Source of the DNA: Telopea speciosissima
Taxonomy: Eukaryota; Streptophyta; Magnoliopsida; Proteales; Proteaceae
DNA: 64,000 bases
Reading direction: 5' to 3'
Assembly: GCF_018873765.1 (NCBI RefSeq)
Contig: NC_057924.1
Coordinates: 6,014,001 to 6,078,000 of the forward strand
Of the stretch, positions 5,913 through 59,107 are shown in pieces. Both the position numbers and the translations under genes were made by a program. The notes beneath the pieces were generated by a model, which saw only the letters and a program-made list of their open reading frames with translations, had not been told where the DNA came from and searched no databases. Each line of letters begins with the position of its first letter. Within the stretch, counting starts at the first letter, position 1.

Positions 5913-6379
5913 TCAGTCCAAATAAAGTTTGCCAACTGGAAAAATAAAGCTCTGAAAGTAGTAGAGGTAGAGGAAAAGACTGAGAAGAAGCAACAATCCT
6001 ATCAGCTAACTCAGCTAACCTCTCTCATAGCTCATATTCCAAGACTTGATTTTGAGAAATCTAACACAATTTAGTTACATCTTTTTCATTTTGGTGGGTA
6101 AATTAATATTTGTAAGAAGAAATTGTACAAAAAATACTTGGTCATTGAGAACAACATTTGAAGGTAAAGAAAAAAAATCCTCTTAACCAACTACCAAATA
6201 GTTTCCTATGAACTCATAAGGGATAACCTCTACTAGGCATGACTTCATAGGTTTGCATCGATCATTTCACAGTGGCCAAAATACAGAAATTGATTACAAA
6301 ATTTTCTGGTACAATTTCCATTTCCATGATATCTAATGTTTTACACAAGAAAGCATACATAACTAGTTATCAGTTTCCA
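5913..6379. other. Convergent 3' flank, no gene seen
   Basis: AT-rich DNA between the hairpin MITE and the end of the minus-strand gene at 6380. It probably includes that gene's 3' UTR. Nothing else recognised. Confidence 0.4.
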
Positions 6380-9300
6380 TTACTTACAATTTGTTAATGC
6401 TTTCTTCACTTTGGAACTACTTGAGCTGCTATTAGAGTCCCTAAGAGTTCCCTCCATGGTAGCGTCTTTCTTCCCAGTGTCTTCGACTACTTTGCTGCCA
6501 AAGGGGATACTGGAAGGGTGACCATAACAAGGTAATGTATGAAGGGAAATGTAATTTGTGGAAGGAGGAAAAGATCGGTAACCATATGTAGATGGGTAAG
6601 GGCAAGAAGGAACTGCATTCATATGAGGCCAATATGTAATTGGCACGAATGGGTTTGTTGGGAGGGGTGGTGGGAACATGGAATATTGAGTTGGTGTCTG
6701 ACTTGCATGGTAGGAGACATTGGGGTTGGAACTAGTAGGAGTATCTTTTAGTGTATGAGATGGAATTGATGTAAAAGCTGCCATTGCATGAGTCTGGAGG
6801 GATGAATACCCCATAAGCCCAAATGGTATAGTTGGTACAGGACTCGAAGGAACAGGTGGTAGTGTTGAGGATCTCAGCGAATTTCGGGACTTACTTGTCA
6901 AAGCTGTTTGCTTCTTGCTGCTAGATTTCATCAAAACTGGTTTCCCAACTAACTGCTGTGAATTGGGGCTAGCCTGACAAAGGAAAAAAAAAAAATTACC
7001 AACTATGAAACAAGAAAGTGTTTCAAAGAGAAATCGAAATTAGAGCATTCAACTTGCAATTGCTTCTTAGCTACATGGTTCTTTGTATCACAGCTTTGTA
7101 AGGAATTTAATGGTTTAGTCCTCGGAGATTTATTCTTGTCATGATCTGATGACTCTGTTGAGTGATTATGACGGGCAACTCATAATGGTTTTGGAGGGAT
7201 TTGATACAAACCTACAGGATAATGACAAGAAGAAATACCTGATTTACCTTTTCTTCAATTACTGAACTTACCTTGGTCATACTAATTCATTTTGTGGAGA
7301 CAATATCAAGTTTTAATCTTGACAATAAAATATAACAATTTAGAAGAATAAGAACCACAGAGTTATTGGATAAGGATTAAGGATCTATGGTCTTACAGTG
7401 TCGAAAGAAAGTGGATAAGGTTGAAACAACTCCTCCCCTTCAGCATCTTCATCTGTCCTGCAAGAAGAGGTTTTGTCCCTCAGTGAAATAGCTCTCTGAC
7501 ATGAGACAGTTCTATAATGTTAGGGGGGGAGGGGGGGGGGGGGGGCTTCAAAGAAACCTGGAGAAAACTCTCTAAAAGCTTTCCAAATCTTTTGGTGATG
7601 TTAACTTATTTCTATGAATGCATTTAATTACAGGATTTGATTAAAGTATAGATAACATCATATAGAAAAATAATGTTAATCTCTTCCGTTCACAACGCAT
7701 AAGACTGATGGACTCAAGCTACCCACTGTGTATGTGTGTGTGTGTAATGAGTATTGAGTACCTGTAATATTTCTGAAGCAGGTCCAAGTTCCTGTACTTG
7801 GTCTCCCTTTGAACTACATCATCGGGAAAACCAGCCATAAACAATAGTGTGATACCCAAGGCCTTGAAGAAGAAGCTTCCACTGCGAAGATTAACCAGCA
7901 TTGCCATCTGGCAGATTAAGGGCCCAAAAGATTTCAGCTTGTTCCTTCCCATACGCTGCCTGACATACCTGAAACAACTCAACCATAGATTTCTCTAGAT
8001 TAGACTAAAATCTGATAATCTCAAGAGTTAGTGATGATATTAGCATAAAACGAACTTCTTGGTGATACCCATAAAGATTAACTAGTTAGTGGTTGCTAAT
8101 TTAACATAGCAAAATGTTGGAATTTTCAAAATATTGGTGTGGGACTAAAAGTCCCACATCGGCTAGGAAAGAAAAGCTCATTGGGTTTATATGTGTTTGT
8201 GGTTATTATTATCACATGTTATGCTTAGAAGAGATTGTACGGTGCACTTGCAAGCGAGGACGGTGACCGTCCGAGCGCGTGCGTGTGAGTGAGGCGCAAT
8301 GTGGTGCTTTGATGGCGCATTTTGCACTTCCCACATGAGCATCGTCGCAGTATGTCGCCTTAATCTTTTCAGGATCGACGTTGAGCCCAATGATTGCAGC
8401 CCATACGTACAGCCTTGAGAGCCCATCCCAATAGTCATGACCCATCAGATTAAGGCATATGAGCCAATGGATGTAACTCATCCAAACAGTGTCATGGGCC
8501 TATATAAAGCCCATGATTTCAGTCAGTTAAAACATAACAATTCTCATAGCTTCAAGGTGATTACTGTCTCTGCAAAACAGTTAGTCAAGTCCAGCCTGAT
8601 TTATCTTGGGAGGCAGGTTTGCTGCAACCCTTTGCAGGAATAGGAGGGTGCAAATACTGTCTTAAGGACAGAACGACCTCGTTCGACTCAGGCCATCTTT
8701 CCGTCCTCTCCTTTTTTGTATCAGATTTCTAACACAAAAAACACCTTTTCTTTGAGCCACATTTTTTTCTCAGAAGAATGTTTCTACATGAGTGGGATCA
8801 TTAACATTAACCTGGCACACCATCCCCATGCATAGAAGTTCTTCAATTGCATCTCCTTCATTTTCTATCGATATGAAAAAAATTAGAACTCTTCCTAATT
8901 GATACTAATTTAGCTCAGTGAGGAAATTTCAATAAAACAGTCCTCAATTTGTAGCCATTTTCATTTTCCTTTCTGTCACTTAATGAACAAGATAATTACT
9001 TGCAAAGCAAGAAGAATTCACATTAGAATAAATACAATGCGAGTCTGAAGCACATCATGTATCTGAGGTCAAGGGAATTGATGTTCCACATAATTGTTGG
9101 TACATTGTGAACAAGTTGATTTTCTCAGGAAGAACACCAAGAGTAGCACAGAGTACTGTAGCGTGAATTCGCTTGCCCATGGATACATAAGCCTCAATCT
9201 CATTCTCTGACAACTCATTCAAATATTTCATAACTTATTATCCCCCTGAAATCCATCAGGAAAATAAAGGGTGTACCCAGTGCACGAGGCTCCCACCTCT

Positions 9301-12300
9301 GCAGGGTCTGGGGGAAGTCATAATGTATGCAGCCTTACCCCGCTTCACGGAGAGACTATTTCCCAACTCGAACCCATGACCACTAGGTCACAATGGAGCA
9401 ACCTTACCGTTGCGCCAAGGTCCGCCCTCTCCTGAAATCCATCAAGAAAATAATGAGTAAAATATCCCAGTTTACCATCAAAGAAACAAATTGCCACTTA
9501 ACTCCTCCACCGTAATACCATTGTTAATTGAACATAAAAGAGTAATCCTTCTTTTGCATTGAGGAAATTATCATTTGTGTGTCTAGGTTAATCTTAGTGC
9601 ATCAATCAACAAGGCTGAACTGGAATTGGAACCAGTACAAAGGGCTAGCAGTCTAGCCTACTCACTTGAGTGTGTGGATCAGCTCCCATGGATAAAGAAA
9701 TAGAAAGAAATTTTCTCAAAAACAAAGTCATTAGAGTAAAATTGCAGTGGCATGGCCATGTGTAAGAAGTTCAAGAGATCACTTCATGCTGAAAAAGGAC
9801 GAGGATCCATAAAAAGGGAAGTACCAAACTTACTCATTTTGTGGAAGATTACGTGTCCTCCCTCCATATTTTATGCATAAAAATAAGCATGATGGACAGC
9901 TTGGATCAGATGGGCGCATACGCTTCTCCTCTTCAAGTATTTGAACAGGACAGAGTATTGGGTTCTGCTGATTTGGATAGAAGACTTTCCTCCTCACTCC
10001 AGGATGCTCATATAAAACATGTTCCTGATAATTAATGAGATCTCTTTATAATTTGGTACAAACATATGAAGAACTAGAAAGAGAACGCCTTAAGCATAGC
10101 CAATCATACTTTAGGGATTTAATTAATAACACTCAGTAACTCAGTCAAATGTCAATTCACCTATTACAATTACAAGTTACAGCCTACAATCATCCTATTT
10201 TAATTGACAACTGGGGAAGGAAATGGAAACATAATTCACTGGATTCCATACAGATATTAATGGATGAGACAAGAAAAAACACTCCGCAATAGAGCACAAT
10301 GCCATGAAAATTATATAAATGAAGATGTGGTTTAAGCTTAATGAGTTGGGATTGGTTGCAAACAGAAGGGCTAAACATGAAGAAGAGTATTCATGACACT
10401 CAATATAAAAGGCAGCAATGTCGACAAACAAAAAAAGTTGCAGCTGCAACTTATGAATGCCCTTAATTAATCAATACCATATTCACGAGCATATATACTT
10501 CTGGCAGCTAGATCATTGTTAGATGACTGAAGTTTAAAACTAACACCTTCACAATTACTTACCCCAGGATCCTGTGGAGATACATATGGCTCTCCCTTCC
10601 TTAATATGGAAAAGTGATTGATGTCCAACTCATACATATCTTCACACCCATGCCTTATGCCAAGAGAAGCAAAGACGATGATTTTCCGTATGGTATGAGA
10701 CTGAGCATTTTTCAATAGAAGCGCTTCTGACTCTATTATTCTCTTGACTTCCTTTGGACAAAAAGCCACCTTTGGGGGCTTCTTATGCAATGAGATGCTT
10801 CCATACCTTTTTTGCATAATCTCCTGCCCAGAACCCGAAATGTGGATCTCTGATGATGCCTTATATCCTTTAATCTTTTTGTAATTGTCTCTCCTGTTGT
10901 GCCTTTTGAGTTCTGTCTTGTTAGAAGTGGTTCCTGAATCAGGTAATAACACACAACCTTTGTCTTGATCTCCATTTATTTCTTGGCTCACACTCAGACC
11001 TTTTGGTCGACTCGAATAACCAGGGAGCCTTTCTGTGCATGGTACATGTATTCCTCCATCAACACCTTCTTCATGAAAATGCCTTTTTAATGTAATTGAA
11101 ACATCTAACTTGTCATCATTTTCCCTATCCTTATCCTCAACATCGACATTGTCCTCATCATAGTACTCATCATCCTCATCACCACTATCATCTGTATCCT
11201 CACAATCTGCAGCCAGGTCACCATCTTTAAAATTTTCAACATTTGAAAGTTGTGTCTCATCCATGCTCATCCAGTTTACTAGGTGGTCTCTTTGATCAGA
11301 ATCTTCAAGGAGCACGCATGGAGGGTCACCCATCTTGGGACTCTTTGCAGTTTCTTCATCTCCAACTTCTACATTTTCTATATTTTCTCTCTTAAACTTC
11401 TTGAAACTTCTCTCTGTTCCAGTGAGGCAGTCAACCTAGGAGATAAAGAATGTTAGGAGAGAATGAAAGAATAATATCTTACAAGTCAACAAGGGAAAGA
11501 AAATCACAAGCGGAACAAATAAGAACCCTGTCTAACTCAACTGCAACAAGTATCTATGGTTTATAATTTTATTTACCTTTTGGATCACCTCAGAGAAATA
11601 TGATTTGGAACACACAGAAAACAGGCATTGGAGAGAGCCGTGAACTTTAACAGGTTTTAACTTCTGAAGTATCCAACCTTTGCAAACAAGAAATCACCAG
11701 AATGCATTTTTTTTTCTGAGGAAAGAACACTCAAAAGAGCGCTGTATTTAGATCTTCAAAGTTCATCTTACAGGAAAGTAACATTATACAGTGACTCATT
11801 GGATCTCCCGTAAAAAGTGCATTAAGGCATCTTATTGGATTAGGTGCGTTTATCTCTGATTCATAGGTTCATCAATTGATAAAGCAGGGTTGTTCCGACT
11901 TCTGAGTTAATTCTCTCTTACCCCAAATCAACTATCCCTGACTTTTCATTTCCATCATCTTTAAATAAAAATATCCATTGAACAAAGATTTGAAATAGCC
12001 ATGGACAATATCAAAGATGGTCCATTTAGATGTTTGATTGATGTGCTCATTCTAACAGTTGCCTTCCAAGTTAATGAATTACCTTATTTCATTTTCAGCC
12101 AATCAAAGCTCCATTCAGTTAAATCGTCTACTTCTTTTCCACCCTGCTGGATTATGAACAAAAAGAGCTTCACTACCAACCAGATTTCCTCTGTATATCC
12201 AAAACACAGCTGTTTTCATTCTAAACTGATGTTCACTGAACTCACCTATTTTAATATTCTTTCCACCTTAAAATTTGTGTAAAAACACCTTTGTTTGAAT

Positions 12301-13128
12301 GAAAAAGCTGGCCAGTGACTAGCAGTTAACAGGTGAAAGACATGATTTCAACTTAGATCAAATACAATTATTTTAACTTTACCAGCTTAGCAAAATGGAG
12401 CTTCATGAGCTGTGCAAAGTTACCTAGTCCAACTCTTCATGCAAACCAGTTCCTTAATTAGGAAGCCTGTTGTCCATATCTAGTCAATTAACTTGTTCTA
12501 ACCACTGCATGTAATTTGAATTCATTCAGAACAAATTCAGACAACTACAAACCTCAATTACTTAGTCATCCATGTAAATATTGATTAGTGGAGATCATCA
12601 CTAACAGGGGAGTGTTTTATATACCTACAAAATCCTGATGGTAAAGTAATTAGCCCAACAGATAACTTGAAAATCAGATACAGATTATAATCAATTATTG
12701 AAACCATCCCTTCAACATGTCTGTGTTCCAGTTTAAGGTGCTTCACATGAAAGAACGTAAAAGAAAGTTGAACAAACAGAGAAGAAGCATTGGTTGCAGT
12801 TAAAGAGAAACTATGTAACAATGACAGAAATCGGTTTATGTTGATCAAATGGCCGTACTTGAGTAGTATTAAGGAGTGAGGCTTTCTCCCTCTCTTGTAT
12901 CTGAGCTTCCAATAAGGATATTCTTTCCATAAGCTCTGCATTCTTCTGACGTTCTCTCTGCAACTGGGCTGAAATCTCTGCAACAACATTAATGTTGTCT
13001 TCTTTCACATCCCGCTCATCACAACCCAATGGAACTGGGTGAACAGAAAACTCTAAGGAACACCCTCTGTTTCTCGCACACAATGCAGAAGCATTAACCA
13101 AACTAGCACAGGAATGTAGTTCTGCCAT
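6380..13128 (-). CDS. Conserved plant protein with a degenerate tyrosine-recombinase-like domain
   Basis: Six exons: 13128-12859, 11435-10563, 10024-9834, 7968-7762, 7457-7397 and 6973-6380. All have GT/AG junctions and keep one frame of 731 residues. Residues about 50-85 form a coiled coil (Glu/Arg/Leu heptads); 168-198 is an Asp/Glu-rich acidic tract; 317-515 is a conserved globular domain; the C-terminal 200 residues are Pro/Ser/Tyr-rich and look disordered. I remember near-identical plant proteins (wording such as SHTIRKIIVFASLGIRHGCE), so this is a real, conserved gene, but I know no assigned function. The globular domain follows the order of a phage-integrase/Crypton-type catalytic domain. 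Arg351 stands in the G-L-R-x-x-E position; Phe477 and Lys480 replace the His and Arg of HxxR; Lys502-Tyr503 replace Gly-His; Tyr512 sits nine residues after Tyr503, where the nucleophile belongs. I infer a domesticated, probably inactive recombinase acting in the nucleus. Intron 3 carries a solo LTR and a SINE. Confidence 0.85.
7523..7545. repeat. G-run in intron 5 side of the recombinase-like gene
   Basis: A nearly pure run of G, broken by one A, lies about 65 bp beyond the start of exon 5 (7457). On the coding strand it is a C-run within intron 4, upstream of the exon 5 acceptor. Confidence 0.8.
8115..8734. mobile_element. Solo LTR, probably Ty1/copia
   Basis: A 620-bp unit starting TGTTGGAA and ending TTTCTAACA, flanked by the perfect 5-bp repeat CAAAA (8110-8114 and 8735-8739). 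TG...CA ends and a 5-bp duplication are the mark of an LTR retrotransposon. The inner GTGGGACTAAAAGTCCCAC palindrome is common in plant copia LTRs. A TATATAAAG box lies at 8501-8509. No internal region is attached, so it is a fossil left by LTR-LTR recombination, now inside intron 3 of the recombinase-like gene. Confidence 0.8.
9055..9231 (-). other. Protein-like open frame of 58 codons inside intron 3
   Basis: On the same strand as the host gene, an ATG at 9231 opens a frame containing NELSENEIEAYVSMGKRIHA and LGVLPEKINLFTMYQQLCG before a stop at 9055. The composition looks like real protein, and a second short stretch at about 8810-8890 reads ENEGDAIEELLCMGMVCQ before a possible GT donor. 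I do not recognise the family. It lies just downstream (in transcription order) of the SINE. It could be a nested gene fragment, an alternative exon, or chance. Confidence 0.3.
9268..9430 (-). mobile_element. Au-type SINE (tRNA-derived)
   Basis: 163 bp, read on the minus strand: a tRNA-like head with ACCTTGGCGCAACGGTAAGG (A-box region) and GGGTTCGAG (B box), then the Au-SINE body with GGGTAAGGCTGC and GGGAGCCTCGTGCACTGGG. It is flanked by a 23-bp direct repeat at 9245-9267 and 9431-9453 that differs at one base, a clean sign of target-primed insertion. Sequence and order match the plant Au SINE family as I remember it. It lies in intron 3 of the recombinase-like gene, in the same orientation. 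Confidence 0.9.
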
Positions 13129-14323
13129 TAATAATATCCAAACCCTGCTTCAAAATTTATAAGTTTCCAGCAAAACCCACATAAAAGGGACCGGTCTTCA
13201 ATGCACAGAAAGCAGAGAACCAAAAACCCACAAAGTTCGAAGCTTTTGGGGAAACCGCATTAGGGATAAAGATCAAACACCTATAATGCAAGTTCAAAAT
13301 AGGCATCCAAGATCAAAATCTATAAGAAAACAGTGAAACAAAGAGATGGGTCTTTTTCAGAATTTGAGAAGAACATTCATTTAACACATCAGATTACTTT
13401 TAAAACCCAATACAGAAAAACTAAATGAGACGAAAAGAAGACAGAACCCAGATAAGACAATGGGGGAGATGAAGCATCAGTAAAGGAAGTTGATTGAGTT
13501 ACAGAGAGAAAACAGAGAAATGGGAAAGGAAGACTTCTAGAGATTTCTTCTGTTGTTAATGGAAATACGTAGGATTTAGAGAGATGATCAGGAGAGTCTT
13601 ATGGGTTTTGATTATTGTATAAGAGGGCGGCGGGTACCGAGGGATGGGGCATGCAACACCACGTGCTTCACAAAACCTTCTCATCTCTCTCTCTCTCTCT
13701 CTTGGTCTCTGTGTTCCTTCTCTAAGTGAACTCCCAAACATTAATAATAATTTCCTCGGCTCCAAATTCTATAATCCATTCTCAGGAGACAAAGCTCTTA
13801 GCTCTTAAGTCAAGTGAAATCCTTTGTACCTCGTAACTTGAGAACTGATGGGGAGAGGAAAGGGGTCCCCCCAACCCGGGCTTTCCTCACCAATTTCAAA
13901 GATCCTATATTGTTTTTCCTTTTTTTTCTTTTCTTTTCTTTTCTTTCACCTTATGTTATTATTTAGAACAGAATCACAGATTATTAGATCCCACCCAAAA
14001 GCTTGAATTACAAGAGAAAAAACCAAAAACCAGAGCACAGCTTGGATTGATCAATTGTTCAGGTCTGTTCAAATGTTATACCAGGAGCCGGGCCCCCCCC
14101 CCCCAGCCCCAGCCATCATCCTCAATGAAAGATCAAACTTGCTGATGTCAGTAATCAGAGGTCGTTGGCAGTAGAGCATCAGCAACAGTCAATTGATATA
14201 AAATGCAGCTGGCTAGTGAGATCCATCAGTCTCACTGTACTGAAAACTAGATTGGACTATACAATTTCTCTCAGTATTTGCCGGATGATGATCCCAACAT
14301 GTCATCTTGGCTTTGATACTAAT
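13129..14323. other. 5' leader and promoter region of the recombinase-like gene
   Basis: Upstream flank of the minus-strand gene. It holds a CT microsatellite at about 13685-13701 and a C-run near 14093-14104. No protein-like frame is seen. The exact transcription start is not visible. Confidence 0.4.
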
Positions 14324-14936
14324 TGTTGATTTCAAATTAAACTATCGTTCTTTGATATATTAAAATCAATTGATAGCAATGAAAGGATAATTTCATTTCA
14401 TTATACAAGATGGGCGATTAGTCTTATAGTCACAAAGAGACGTTGATCTCCTAGACCCACCAATAGGGCCTCTATTTCATAGTAGATATTCAAGTTGGAG
14501 ATATGTGGCAGTAGCAGCTGAGGTACTACCATTGAGTGGCTATACCTATAAGGCTAAGACGGAAAGAAGAGAGATTACAACTCCTCTATTGAGAATTGGA
14601 TCTATAGTACAAGATGGTTAAAAGAGTTTCTCTCTTGTTAGAAAAACAACGTCGAGAAATGAGATTTGCATAAGAAAACGGAAAAAGAAGAGAAGATCAA
14701 ACACACAACATAAGGATTTTACGTGATTCACCTTCAAGAAGATATGCTACATCTACGGTCGGTGATAGAATATGGTTTCTCTATTTCTCTGAAAAATATT
14801 ACAAACCCTCAAATCTCACTTTACCCTCTCAACGAGATAAGAACAATTTATAAGGAAGTCCTAATCCAGAAAAATAAAGAAATACCCCAAGAACCCCAAA
14901 AAACCCACTCGATTAGGTTAAGACCAAAACTTAACA
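14324..14936 (-). mobile_element. LTR remnant with adjoining primer-binding site
   Basis: A 613-bp stretch bounded by TGTTGATTTC and ACTTAACA in the given strand. Immediately beside it (14308-14323) lies a sequence that, inverted, resembles the initiator-tRNA-Met primer site (TGGTATCAGAGC type). The inner motif TACGTGATTCACC..CTACATCTACGGTC is common in plant copia LTRs. It is a fossil with no coding region attached. No target duplication was found, so the ends are approximate. Confidence 0.45.
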
Positions 14937-16311
14937 TATGTTGAAATACATATCATTTCGAAGGTCTCGATGAGCTCTACAAAAAATAGTGCCAATATGT
15001 ATGCATTTTTTGACCTTTTTTACGCGTTTCGAAGGCAAAACGACCCTCTAAAGATTCCCCATAATACTTTCTGAATTGAGATCAGGCTTCACCAATAACA
15101 TCTGTCTCTCAAAATAAATAAGACCCATTGATATTGAAAAACCCTTAACCTTGGGGTTGGTGGGCTTGCTAGTGCTTTTACAAATTCATACATGGAGATT
15201 GTGAGAGATCCTTTCTGGGCATTGTCCTACCGAGGAAGAGAAAGAGAGAGAGAAGGAGAGAAAAAATTAATGGTTATATTGACTGGCGAGTCCATTACAC
15301 CGACCCCTTCCCTATTTGCTTTTAAAAAAATGGATGCACACGTGCAGGTTAAATGTTAGTGGGGTACAAGGTAGAAACACAACCTCACGTGCAATACTAA
15401 CTTAAATGGTTTGTCTCAAATGTAAAGCTTTGTCAGGGGGAATATATGAGACTTAACCTTGGATTCCATCATTCTAATTATAATTTATACCTTAATGGTT
15501 CCATGGAAAATGTGCTCTGATGAGTAAATGAAGAAATACTTAAACTTCTCAAGAGAAAGTAGAAAATGAGGGTATCCAGATCCACCACTGTTTAAAACAT
15601 CGGAAGCAGATTGATTGAATCGATCCGATTTTAGGGTGTTTTTTTCATCAGATCACTATGTTTTCAGATTTGAGGGGCCGATTGTAGGGTTTTTGAGACC
15701 GTTTTGATCATCGATTCCGATTTTCATAACCCTAGTTTCCATTCCCTTCTGCTTTATTCTAATTCTAATAAAAAAAAAATAAAGGAACCAAATCTTGGAA
15801 ATTCATGAATTGCAAGTGGGCTTGTGGTATAGTGTTTTGTTTGTCTTGTGGTTTGTGTTTAATAAGATTAAGTCCTTTGGTAATGATGCTTCCACTTTTT
15901 CTATTGATTAGTTCCACATGATATGTTAGGTTAAGCTTTAAAATAGGAGAAATGAAGGTGATTAAAATAATTTTTGTACTTATTTGGTAATGAAGACATA
16001 ATATATTTTAATGAAACCATGATTATACCATTTTGGTTGCAAAGTGTGGGATTCAGGAAGTAAACTGGTGCCAGGCAAGCCTTGCAATGAGGATGATTGC
16101 CAATTTCTACTTCTTCTAAAATTATAGAAAAGACAAAATATGGGCTTGCCAATTAGTTTCTTTGCAACTATGCCTAAACATTTTTCACTATTATTTTGAA
16201 GCCCTCTCAAGACCTTTACAATAAAAAATTATGCTCTTTCAAGATAAGTAATTGGAAGGAATAGTTTTATTATTAGAAATAGAACATCTTCTCTTGATCA
16301 TTAAAAAAGGA
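14937..16311. other. Intergenic DNA, no gene seen
   Basis: AT-rich sequence without recognisable genes. The first ~150 bp may belong to the adjoining LTR remnant. Confidence 0.35.
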
Positions 16312-17904: not shown

Positions 17905-19463
17905 ATCCTCATTACGTCAAGCAAAGAACTTCTTCCGCGTTGCCTGCTTGCCATTTTAACTGCAATTTAATGAAAGTGGCACAATATTTCATCAGTGTGT
18001 ATCAGATTTGAAAAGAATTTTAAGTCATAACATATGAGAAATCACACCTCAAAGACTGATTAGAATGGAAATGAGCTTGACTAATCTGTGGCTTGGCAGG
18101 TTATTAGTTGATGTAGGTGGGCTCTAAGACATGCAAGCTGACTGATTGTAAGGTTAATAATTGAAAGGAGAATTTGAACTAAATAAGAATTTATACATTT
18201 CAAAATTACTAATTAAATCTGTTTAGTTTCTAAAGTTACAACTCCTTAAAACAATAATTTCTTAGACAATTTTTTTCTTTTACCATAAATGAAAATGAGA
18301 TGCATTCAATCATCCTTGAAGAAGTTCAAAATAAACAGACCAAGTGTAGGCAGAAAAAATAGAGAACTAGAAGTAGAGAACAGGTTCTTGAGCAATTGCA
18401 TGAGCTAATCAGATTCTATTTTCAACTTTACAAACCCAAGCTTGTTTTACCAGGAGGGCATTCTCTTTATTGCATCTGCTTCAGCAATGAAAGATAAAAA
18501 ACTTGTAAAAATGGAAAGTCCAAAAAAATATGAAATATTTAGAAAGCCTAAGAACATGAAGTAGTATCTATTCCAACAAATAACAAGTGTTTTTCTAACC
18601 CAAAAAAATATTGTTTGTGTAATAGAATAAAAAAAAAATTGGTGATTAACTAGAAAGAAAGAAAAAAAGGCTTTATAATATGATAGTAATTACTTGTCTA
18701 TTAAACAAGTCAAAAGATAAAATATAATATATTTAATTTAGAAAATATTTATCTAACTGCAGTGTATGGGAGTGTAAAATGACAAATCTGACCATTGAAT
18801 ATCTAAGAAATAGTCTGAATTAGCAGTGTGTACTATTTCAGACTCATTCAATCATATGATTACCAAAGAAAATATATACTCACCCATGTATTGGAATATT
18901 CCCCTTGCATTATTTCCAAAACTCTTCAACTTTTCATTGAGTTTCCAAAGCTTCATTCTCTTAACCAATACCTTTTTTTTTGTTTTTTTTTTTTTTGTTT
19001 TTTTTTTTTTTGGGGGGGGGGCTAAAATTTGATTTGCAAGCATGGGACCTTGAGATCTCTGTCCATAAAATTTCAGTCTCATTCGACCTCACAATGCGGC
19101 CTTCAACTTCACAAGTGGAAAAGAAAAACTGCCAACAATTGGTATTCAACAAAATATAATCATCCCGAAAAGGAAATCTCCTCTTATTAAGGCATGATGA
19201 AGAAATACAAGCACAGTAAAACAAAAGAACCTAGAAATTAGATTATGCACAAAGACTACATTTTTCAACTACAAACAACGGAAATGATCCTCTGTTTCCG
19301 AAGAACATTTATGAAAGGCTCCATTGAATGTCAGCAACACAAATTAGACCTCCAATGAGACCGTTCGGCTGTTGAGTTGCTCTCATAGTTTGGTATGCAT
19401 AGTCATCAAATTAAATGTAATACACAAACTCGTTCAAACGTACATAGCCACTGATAAGTTGAA
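17905..19463. other. Intergenic DNA and CDPK 3' flank
   Basis: AT-rich DNA with no gene seen. Bases 18969-19022 are a long T-tract broken by single G residues and ending in a pure G-run. The last 250 bp probably include the CDPK 3' UTR. Confidence 0.4.
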
Positions 19464-26130
<6,667 letters not shown>

Positions 26131-49168: not shown

Positions 49169-49730
49169 CTGTAGACAAGAAGTTTGGCATACAAAAGAGA
49201 TGTTTACTGTATAAAATTACTATGCAAATCCAAAATAAAATGATCTCATCATGGGAGGAAACTAAGAGCACCCCAGGTGATCAGAATCAATTCAGCCCCA
49301 TTTGAGTCTCATACCAGCTGTGCTTACATCTTCAGATCAATATCAATGTAAAAGTACAACTCATGTATGATTGTTGGTCAAGATCAGGCAAGCTTACTGT
49401 ATAAGAATGTTAGTGTGGCTAGAGCTTTCAGCTTAGAAACACTAGGCCCGTGTATCAAAACCAAACTTTAAAAGCTGAATCATTCTATCTAGACTGTTTT
49501 AAGAACCATTGCCATGCACTATGCAAAAGGATAAGAGAGTGATGTCTGTGGCTCCTGTTGATTGTAAATCTCAAGAGAAGGATATTGGTGGCTTGCCCCC
49601 AGTTTCAGATACAAAGTCAATCTAACATGGTAAATTAATGCAATTCATGGGAAGTATTGATTTGACTGAGATAATTCTCACCATGATTGGCACTGATGCA
49701 AAATTTTAGAACACATACTAATTTATTTAT

Positions 49731-49866
49731 GGGCGGAAGTTCTCTGTGCAGCAGCGCAGGCTGCACCCAGACACATGGGCTGCCCATTCAGGGGGCAGGG
49801 TGGTCATTTCGCCCAACCTCATGTGTCTGGGTGCAGCCTGCGCTGCTGCACAGAGAACATTTGGCC
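49731..49866. mobile_element. Hairpin MITE, 136 bp, perfect 39-bp arms
   Basis: From 49739 to 49858 the arms GTTCTCTGTGCAGCAGCGCA... pair for 39 of 39 bases. The centre has GGGCAGGGTGGTCATTTCG. Taking ends GGGCGGAAG and inverted GGCCAAATG gives a 136-bp element flanked by TTTATTTAT and TTAATTTAT (8 of 9 match), as for Mutator-like insertion. The perfect arms suggest a recent insertion or gene-conversion-like upkeep. Confidence 0.75.
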
Positions 49867-58344: not shown

Positions 58345-59107
58345 ATTCATTCCAGTACACTTTAATGTAAGACTAGAACCAAAATAGGGCTAATCCTAGG
58401 CAAGATCAAATAGAAAACCTTCCCATAAACAAGAAATCATATGAGGAAACCAAGAGAACAATGGGAACTCAAAAAATAAATAAATAAATTCCTAAGAACA
58501 AGAGAGCAATGGGATTCTCAAAATTGGTTGGAGAAGAATATATAAAGAGAAATAAAAGACTCCTAAAATAAAGACTAATTCTTTAACTAGGAAACTTATT
58601 CAAACAAGGAAACTAAGAACAATTGGGAAACCAAATATCCTACATAGCTAACTTCTAAAATAAACAGAATAAAATAAACTAAAAGAAATTATTTCCCCAA
58701 ATAACATAAATTCCTAAAATCCTACTAAATCCAAAAACTCAAAATTGACCCGGTTCATCTCCGTCAGGATGCTCAAACGCGTTAGGATCAGTCCAAGGTA
58801 GTGCACCTACATCAAGAACTCCACATAATTAAAGGAAAGAAGCTTAAAGCAAGGTTGGACTCATGGAGACCTATTCCAGCATAACTAAAACAGTTTAATA
58901 ACAACTAAATTTTTAAAAAAATATATAGTCTAACTAGATTAACTAATAAAGTAAATACCGTATTCTTACCTCCTACCCATATATTAGGACCATTAAAAGT
59001 GGCTTATTACAAAGAAACCCATTGGACCAAAGGCCCAATAATACGTAATCAACTCAAAGTTTATTCTCACTAAAATAAACCCATTTTCTCTGGTTTATCT
59101 GCATCAG
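58345..59107 (-). mobile_element. LTR-related copy 3, inverted
   Basis: Read on the minus strand it starts TGATGCAGATAAACCAGAG and continues with GGGCCTTTGGTCCAATGGGT and a TAATAAGCCACTTTTAATGG stretch that parallels copies 1 and 2. The later part is more diverged. Right and left limits approximate. Confidence 0.45.

What the first reader, a model, noticed from the sequence alone, without database searches (positions are those of the whole stretch)
6380..13128. A conserved plant gene that looks like a domesticated tyrosine recombinase
Residues 317-515 of the 731-residue product follow the order of a phage-integrase or Crypton-type catalytic domain. There is a helix with KEVKRII then GIRHGCEDMYELDINHF (like TGLRxxELxxLxWxDF), a CPVQIL..K strand-turn as in Crypton/DUF3504 proteins, MGRNKL, then LLFMAGFPDDVVQRETKYRN (like T.LF.AG....Q..TGH.S), and a Tyr nine residues after the GH position. 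Arg351 and Tyr512 fit catalytic places; Phe477, Lys480 and Tyr503 replace His, Arg and His. Such loss is known in host-adopted recombinase domains of animals (for example the DUF3504 part of ZMYM and QRICH1 proteins). I do not recall a plant example being described. The domain sits between a coiled coil, an acidic tract and a disordered tail, which suggests a DNA- or chromatin-binding role.
Basis: partly seen in the sequence, partly recalled or inferred. Interest (0 to 1): 0.85.

Follow-up and report, generated by a model that had tools for sequence, protein, structure and literature searches.

The report
Possible dead recombinase in plant protein
A duplicated plant gene holds a selectively preserved domain that weakly, but in the right places, resembles the core of a DNA-cutting recombinase with most of its active site gone; this would be a rare plant case of taming such an enzyme, but it is not yet proven.

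Summary
The gene is real. The own genome has one other copy, in a collinear block, with the same exons. Residues 310-514 are 90% identical between copies, dN/dS 0.19, against 0.46 and 0.50 in the linker and tail: a selected host domain.

The tyrosine-recombinase reading is partly supported. Profile libraries, PDB sequences, hhalign and single-exon fold models did not recognise the domain. But a box II profile has its best window at residue 476 and the paralog's equivalent in every version tried. With 83 recombinases 0 of 49,017 E. coli ORF windows score as high; without seven motif-picked integrases, 2 and 1 do, and shuffles reach it in 95 and 24 of 5000. Box I alone is at chance.

Best reading: a catalytically dead Crypton/DUF3504-like core reused for DNA or chromatin binding (0.57). 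A structure of the spliced protein with plant homologues would decide. Plants already have one tamed recombinase part, ALOG (PMC3537659).

The parts
12859..13128 (-). exon 1 (residues 1-90): start codon, coiled-coil region
   Evidence: ATG at 13128, GT donor; 72 of 90 residues identical in paralog; sub-threshold Rootletin row
10563..11435 (-). exon 2 (residues 91-381): basic stretches, acidic tract, and the first part of the conserved domain from residue 310, with box I-like GIRHGCEDMYELDINHF and Arg351
   Evidence: GT/AG sites, open frame, paralog
9834..10024 (-). exon 3 (residues 382-444 and part of 445): putative strands and CPVQIL turn-helix
   Evidence: 57 of 63 residues identical in paralog, dN/dS 0.188
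7762..7968 (-). exon 4 (residues 445-514, shared codons at both ends): MGRNKL helix and box II-like 476-512 with Tyr512
   Evidence: 64 of 70 identical in paralog, dN/dS 0.159; box II profile tests
7397..7457 (-). exon 5 (residues 515-534): acidic linker
   Evidence: GT/AG sites, paralog
6380..6973 (-). exon 6 (residues 535-731 and stop TAA at 6382-6380): Pro/Ser-rich tail
   Evidence: AG acceptor, stop shared with paralog
8115..8758 (.). repeat insertion inside intron 3, absent from the paralog's intron (probably a solo LTR)
   Evidence: gap in the collinear alignment; 40 matches scored out of 414 candidates in the genome

Best explanation
A host gene encodes a probable nuclear protein: coiled coil, acidic tract, a conserved domain of about 205 residues, disordered tail. 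The domain is most likely a decayed tyrosine-recombinase catalytic core of the Crypton/DUF3504 style. It keeps the first Arg (351) and the Tyr (512), but the His, second Arg and second His are Phe477, Lys480 and Tyr503, so it should not recombine DNA. It most likely works as a DNA- or chromatin-binding or protein-docking module in a dimer made by the coiled coil. Shown: gene structure, paralog, selection on the domain, box II resemblance modestly above chance. Inferred: fold, origin from a mobile element, nuclear location, dimerisation, binding role.
For: Box II profile: best window at 476 (paralog 469) in each version tried; with 83 recombinases 0 of 49,017 E. coli ORF windows as high, shuffles 19/5000 and 3/5000, paired 7/20000. 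In leave-one-out lambda Int scores 1.2, the paralog 1.3. Joint box I + II: best placement 344/476 and 337/469, spacing 132 (recombinases 92-166), shuffles 5/3000 and 8/3000, 0 of 128 E. coli ORFs higher. Best hhalign segment of the two-copy alignment has the same register with Tyr512 on the catalytic Tyr, though at chance score. Domain dN/dS 0.19 against 0.46 and 0.50. Animal precedent and suggested DNA/protein binding: PMC3212892, passages and section 16.
Against: No recombinase family in Pfam, PHROGs or NCBIfam, only chance rows in PDB sequences. HMMER with filters off places the recombinase profile elsewhere at E 0.86. hhalign 13.0 against a mean of 13.2 in 100 shuffles; the window sequence alone aligns in another place. 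Box I alone: whole-protein shuffles match or beat it in 2596/5000 and 2002/5000. The joint score (-6.7, -7.9) is near the best decoy (-8.5) and far below the profile's own members (lowest 40.9, scored with themselves included). Box II weakens without seven integrases that I had picked through a recalled motif: 2 and 1 decoy windows, 95 and 24 of 5000 shuffles. Permuted profiles beat all decoys in both copies in 6 of 400.
Confidence: 0.57

Rival explanations
1. The domain is a plant domain unrelated to recombinases; a run of helices with T.L....AG.....VQ.......L...Y resembles box II by coincidence or convergence. The protein would still be a coiled-coil protein with a selected domain of unknown fold.
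For: Standard homology searches fail; box I at chance; permuted profiles do as well in about 1-2% of trials; shuffles 95/5000 and 24/5000 with the 76-sequence profile; decoys come close in the joint test.
Against: The same register is best in both copies in each profile version, with the catalytic-Tyr position filled and spacings kept.
Confidence: 0.36
2. An active tyrosine recombinase, or a gene of a live Crypton/DIRS element.
For: Arg351 and Tyr512 are kept in both copies.
Against: His, second Arg and second His positions are replaced; two copies at E 0.001 in the genome, sharing introns, in a collinear block; no Phage_integrase match in the genome.
Confidence: 0.02
3. A decaying pseudogene or transposon relic.
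For: None found beyond the intronic repeat insertion at 8115-8758.
Against: Full open frames and GT/AG sites in both copies; dN/dS 0.357 overall and 0.187 in the domain at dS about 0.3.
Confidence: 0.02

Closest known systems
DUF3504 (PF12012) genes of animals: WOC/ZMYM2-4, QRICH1, KCTD1b, KIAA1958 (PMC3212892)
   Same: Proposed: recombinase-like core with most catalytic residues lost, inside a longer conserved host protein.
   Different: No match to the Pfam model. The paper says all six vertebrate genes lost the catalytic Tyr and second Arg; here a Tyr stands at that place. Pfam found no MYM finger or BTB domain in this protein.
ALOG domain of land plants (PF04852; PMC3537659)
   Same: Plant domestication of a tyrosine-recombinase part.
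   Different: [quoted passage not shown] this protein has no ALOG row, while the model has 11 matches in the same genome.
XerC/D-type and phage tyrosine recombinases (PF00589)
   Same: Order and spacing of boxes I and II; Arg and Tyr places.
   Different: Three catalytic places replaced; no significant profile match.
Gcr1/Cbf2 (Ndc10) group of fungi, described as recombinase- or Crypton-derived (PMC3212892, PMC3537659)
   Same: Host proteins reusing recombinase parts as DNA-binding or centromere proteins, as those papers state.

Membership tests
Tyrosine recombinase, Phage_integrase PF00589 | significant profile match | tested here: not met
   PHROGs (window copy) and NCBIfam (paralog) also without a row
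Tyrosine recombinase, Phage_integrase PF00589 | catalytic R-H-R-(H/W)-Y set | tested here: not met
   R351 and Y512 present; F477, K480, Y503 at the others
Tyrosine recombinase, Phage_integrase PF00589 | box II sequence pattern and box I-II spacing | tested here: inconclusive
   box II modestly above chance, box I at chance, joint 5/3000 and 8/3000 shuffles
Tyrosine recombinase, Phage_integrase PF00589 | catalytic-domain fold | tested here: inconclusive
   only single-exon models possible: pLDDT 34.9 and 58.2; Foldseek best E 7.8
DUF3504 PF12012 | score over Pfam's cut-off | tested here: not met
   no row for either copy or 10 pieces; none over cut-off in the genome
DUF3504 PF12012 | grouping with Cryptons in a tree | not testable with these tools
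   no Crypton sequence obtained; four viral contigs patterns gave 0 matches
Crypton element | multicopy mobile element | tested here: not met
   two intron-sharing copies, 12 of 15 aligned rows collinear
ALOG domain PF04852 | profile match in the protein | tested here: not met
   absent from the scan of the 765-letter first model at E up to 10; the model works in this genome

The most novel reading that the evidence does not exclude
A land-plant lineage tamed the catalytic core of a Crypton- or DIRS-type tyrosine recombinase, independently of animals and fungi, into a dead DNA- or chromatin-binding domain that still carries the Arg and Tyr, giving plants a second recombinase-derived regulator family beside ALOG.
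Probability: 0.48. Interest if true: 0.72.

Novelty: new variant of a known kind. Interest (0 to 1): 0.5.

Why it matters
In the passages I read, host genes derived from tyrosine recombinases come from animals and fungi, plus the ALOG domain of plants and an unanalysed green-algal mitochondrial candidate (PMC3212892, PMC3537659). A land-plant catalytic core would point to a further ancient capture, in a lineage where DIRS elements have been reported only from green algae (PMC9033089, passage). It would also give a testable binding role to a plant protein that no family model names.

Tried and rejected
Tried without result: Pfam (both copies and pieces), PHROGs (window copy), NCBIfam (paralog), PDB sequences (one chance row each, E 1.8 and 0.76). 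One of 10 pieces gave a sub-threshold Pox_D2 row (E 0.05, 14.2 bits, cut-off 25), judged chance. tblastn in plasmids and phages (two records each, best E 0.4 and 4, judged chance). Relatives in viral and prokaryote contigs (41, 42 and 157 pattern matches, none confirmed). PF12012 and PF00589 in the own genome (the single PF12012 row, 15.3 bits, E 8.63 with stops, judged chance). Controls Topoisom_I and ALOG do ring there. AlphaFold on exon 2 alone used one of two jobs; exon 4 of both copies gave three helices at pLDDT 58 and two Foldseek rows at E 7.8 and 8.4.

The profile was changed after the first runs: searches used 76 recombinases unweighted (450 and 94 of 20000 whole-protein shuffles; in the unmasked window the exon itself ranked first of 15,544 windows, -10.0, next -10.7; leave-one-out lowest true recombinase -26.1). 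Searches added seven phage integrases picked through a recalled motif, and sequence weights. One search takes these apart. In one search and in its domain shuffle a slice cut the box short. In one search leave-one-out L094 scored -30.7 and lambda Int 1.2, the other 81 at least 26.5. The odds were lowered from 0.60 to 0.57.

Rejected: an extra coding piece at 11677-11577; pseudogene or mobile copy.

Full report
What is there. My first model carried a further 101-nt piece; in the paralog that stretch has indels and no donor, so it was dropped. still used that longer model.

The second copy. Exon 4 finds two places in the genome at E 0.001, itself and one on contig C10 at 91% identity. The first part of the domain finds the same two and a chance-level third (E 3.4, three stops). 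The C10 copy has the same six exons and stop. Of 15 alignment rows with the 50.7 kb of C10 compared, 12 are collinear, covering 5969-15954 and 19297-20132 of the window; three are not (window 8111-8302, 49721-49861, 58828-59106). This looks like a segmental or whole-genome duplicate. Between copies, dN/dS is 0.212 in exon 1, 0.457 in the acidic linker, 0.187 in residues 310-514 and 0.504 in the tail; 185 of 205 domain residues are identical, 573 of 723 aligned overall. The domain is what selection keeps.

Is it a recombinase core? Standard tools name nothing: no Pfam row for the domain of either copy, and among 10 pieces one sub-threshold Pox_D2 row; none in PHROGs for the window copy or NCBIfam for the paralog; only chance rows in PDB sequences. 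HMMER's filters hide matches weaker than roughly E 0.1, so weak DUF3504 similarity could be missed. I therefore built a yardstick: 73 dereplicated recombinases from the best 80 of 105 viral-contig relatives of XerD (78 gave a usable domain), plus XerD, FimB and lambda Int, 76 in all; later 7 phage integrases, picked from a listing made with a recalled motif, 83 in all. Full-length HMMER with filters off and hhalign do not rise above chance.

An ungapped profile of box II (HxLR through the catalytic Tyr, 37 columns) does better. With 83 sequences its best window in the protein is 476-512, and in the paralog the equivalent from 469, with the next window more than 10 bits lower in each. None of 49,017 windows from 176 E. 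coli stop-to-stop ORFs of at least 150 residues, and none of 14,270 six-frame windows of this 64-kb window with the gene masked, reaches either score. Shuffled proteins reach it in 19 and 3 of 5000, paired-column domain shuffles in 7 of 20000. Without the seven motif-picked integrases the register stays the same, but 2 and 1 of 49,017 decoy windows and 95 and 24 of 5000 shuffles reach the score. In column-permuted profiles the window protein reaches the real z-score in 4 of 400, and both copies beat all decoys in 6 of 400. In leave-one-out, L094 (-30.7) and lambda Int (1.2) score no better than the paralog (1.3), the other 81 at least 26.5. The contributions come from T485, L487, G491, V497, Q498, Q510 and Y512 among others, while four of the former catalytic or GH places score negatively (76-sequence profile). 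Box I alone is not significant.

Structure was limited to single exons, and both models are poor.

How it would work. With His, second Arg and second His replaced by Phe477, Lys480 and Tyr503 in both copies, strand exchange is very unlikely. Kojima and Jurka (PMC3212892; passages and section 16 read) argue that DUF3504 domains bind DNA or proteins; several of those genes are transcription or chromatin factors. By analogy, with a coiled coil, basic stretches and an acidic tract in front, I propose a DNA/chromatin-binding or docking subunit. This step is inference.

Known or new? Among the papers listed by my searches (20 of 204; 12 of 12; 0; 25 of 9,157; 15 of 131; 15 of 21; 15 of 16; titles and abstract starts seen) I saw no land-plant protein derived from a recombinase catalytic core. 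Of the 12 DUF3504 papers I opened two, PMC3212892 and PMC8371274; the latter calls DUF3504 specific to eukarya (passages), the former names a green-algal mitochondrial candidate. Passages of PMC9033089 and PMC11630846 gave no such gene. If the reading is right, this is a new variant of a known kind.

Noticed in passing
window 8115-8758: A stretch beginning TGTTGGAATTTTC at 8115, with TTCTAACA near 8734, lies inside intron 3, is missing from the paralog's intron, and belongs to a repeat family (40 matches scored of 414 candidates); it looks like a solo LTR. A piece of the same repeat lies beside the paralog gene (C10 41471226-41471409).
   Followed up: partly
window 5969-15954 and 19297-20132: The neighbourhood is collinear with C10 41461750-41488447, with dS about 0.3 between the two gene copies, suggesting a genome or segment duplication.
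   Followed up: partly
window 7523-7545: A run of almost pure G (one A) in intron 4.
   Followed up: no
own genome, contig C9 3157776-3164939: Four exon-like Topoisom_I (type IB) matches, a distant relative of tyrosine recombinases; served as positive control.
   Followed up: no
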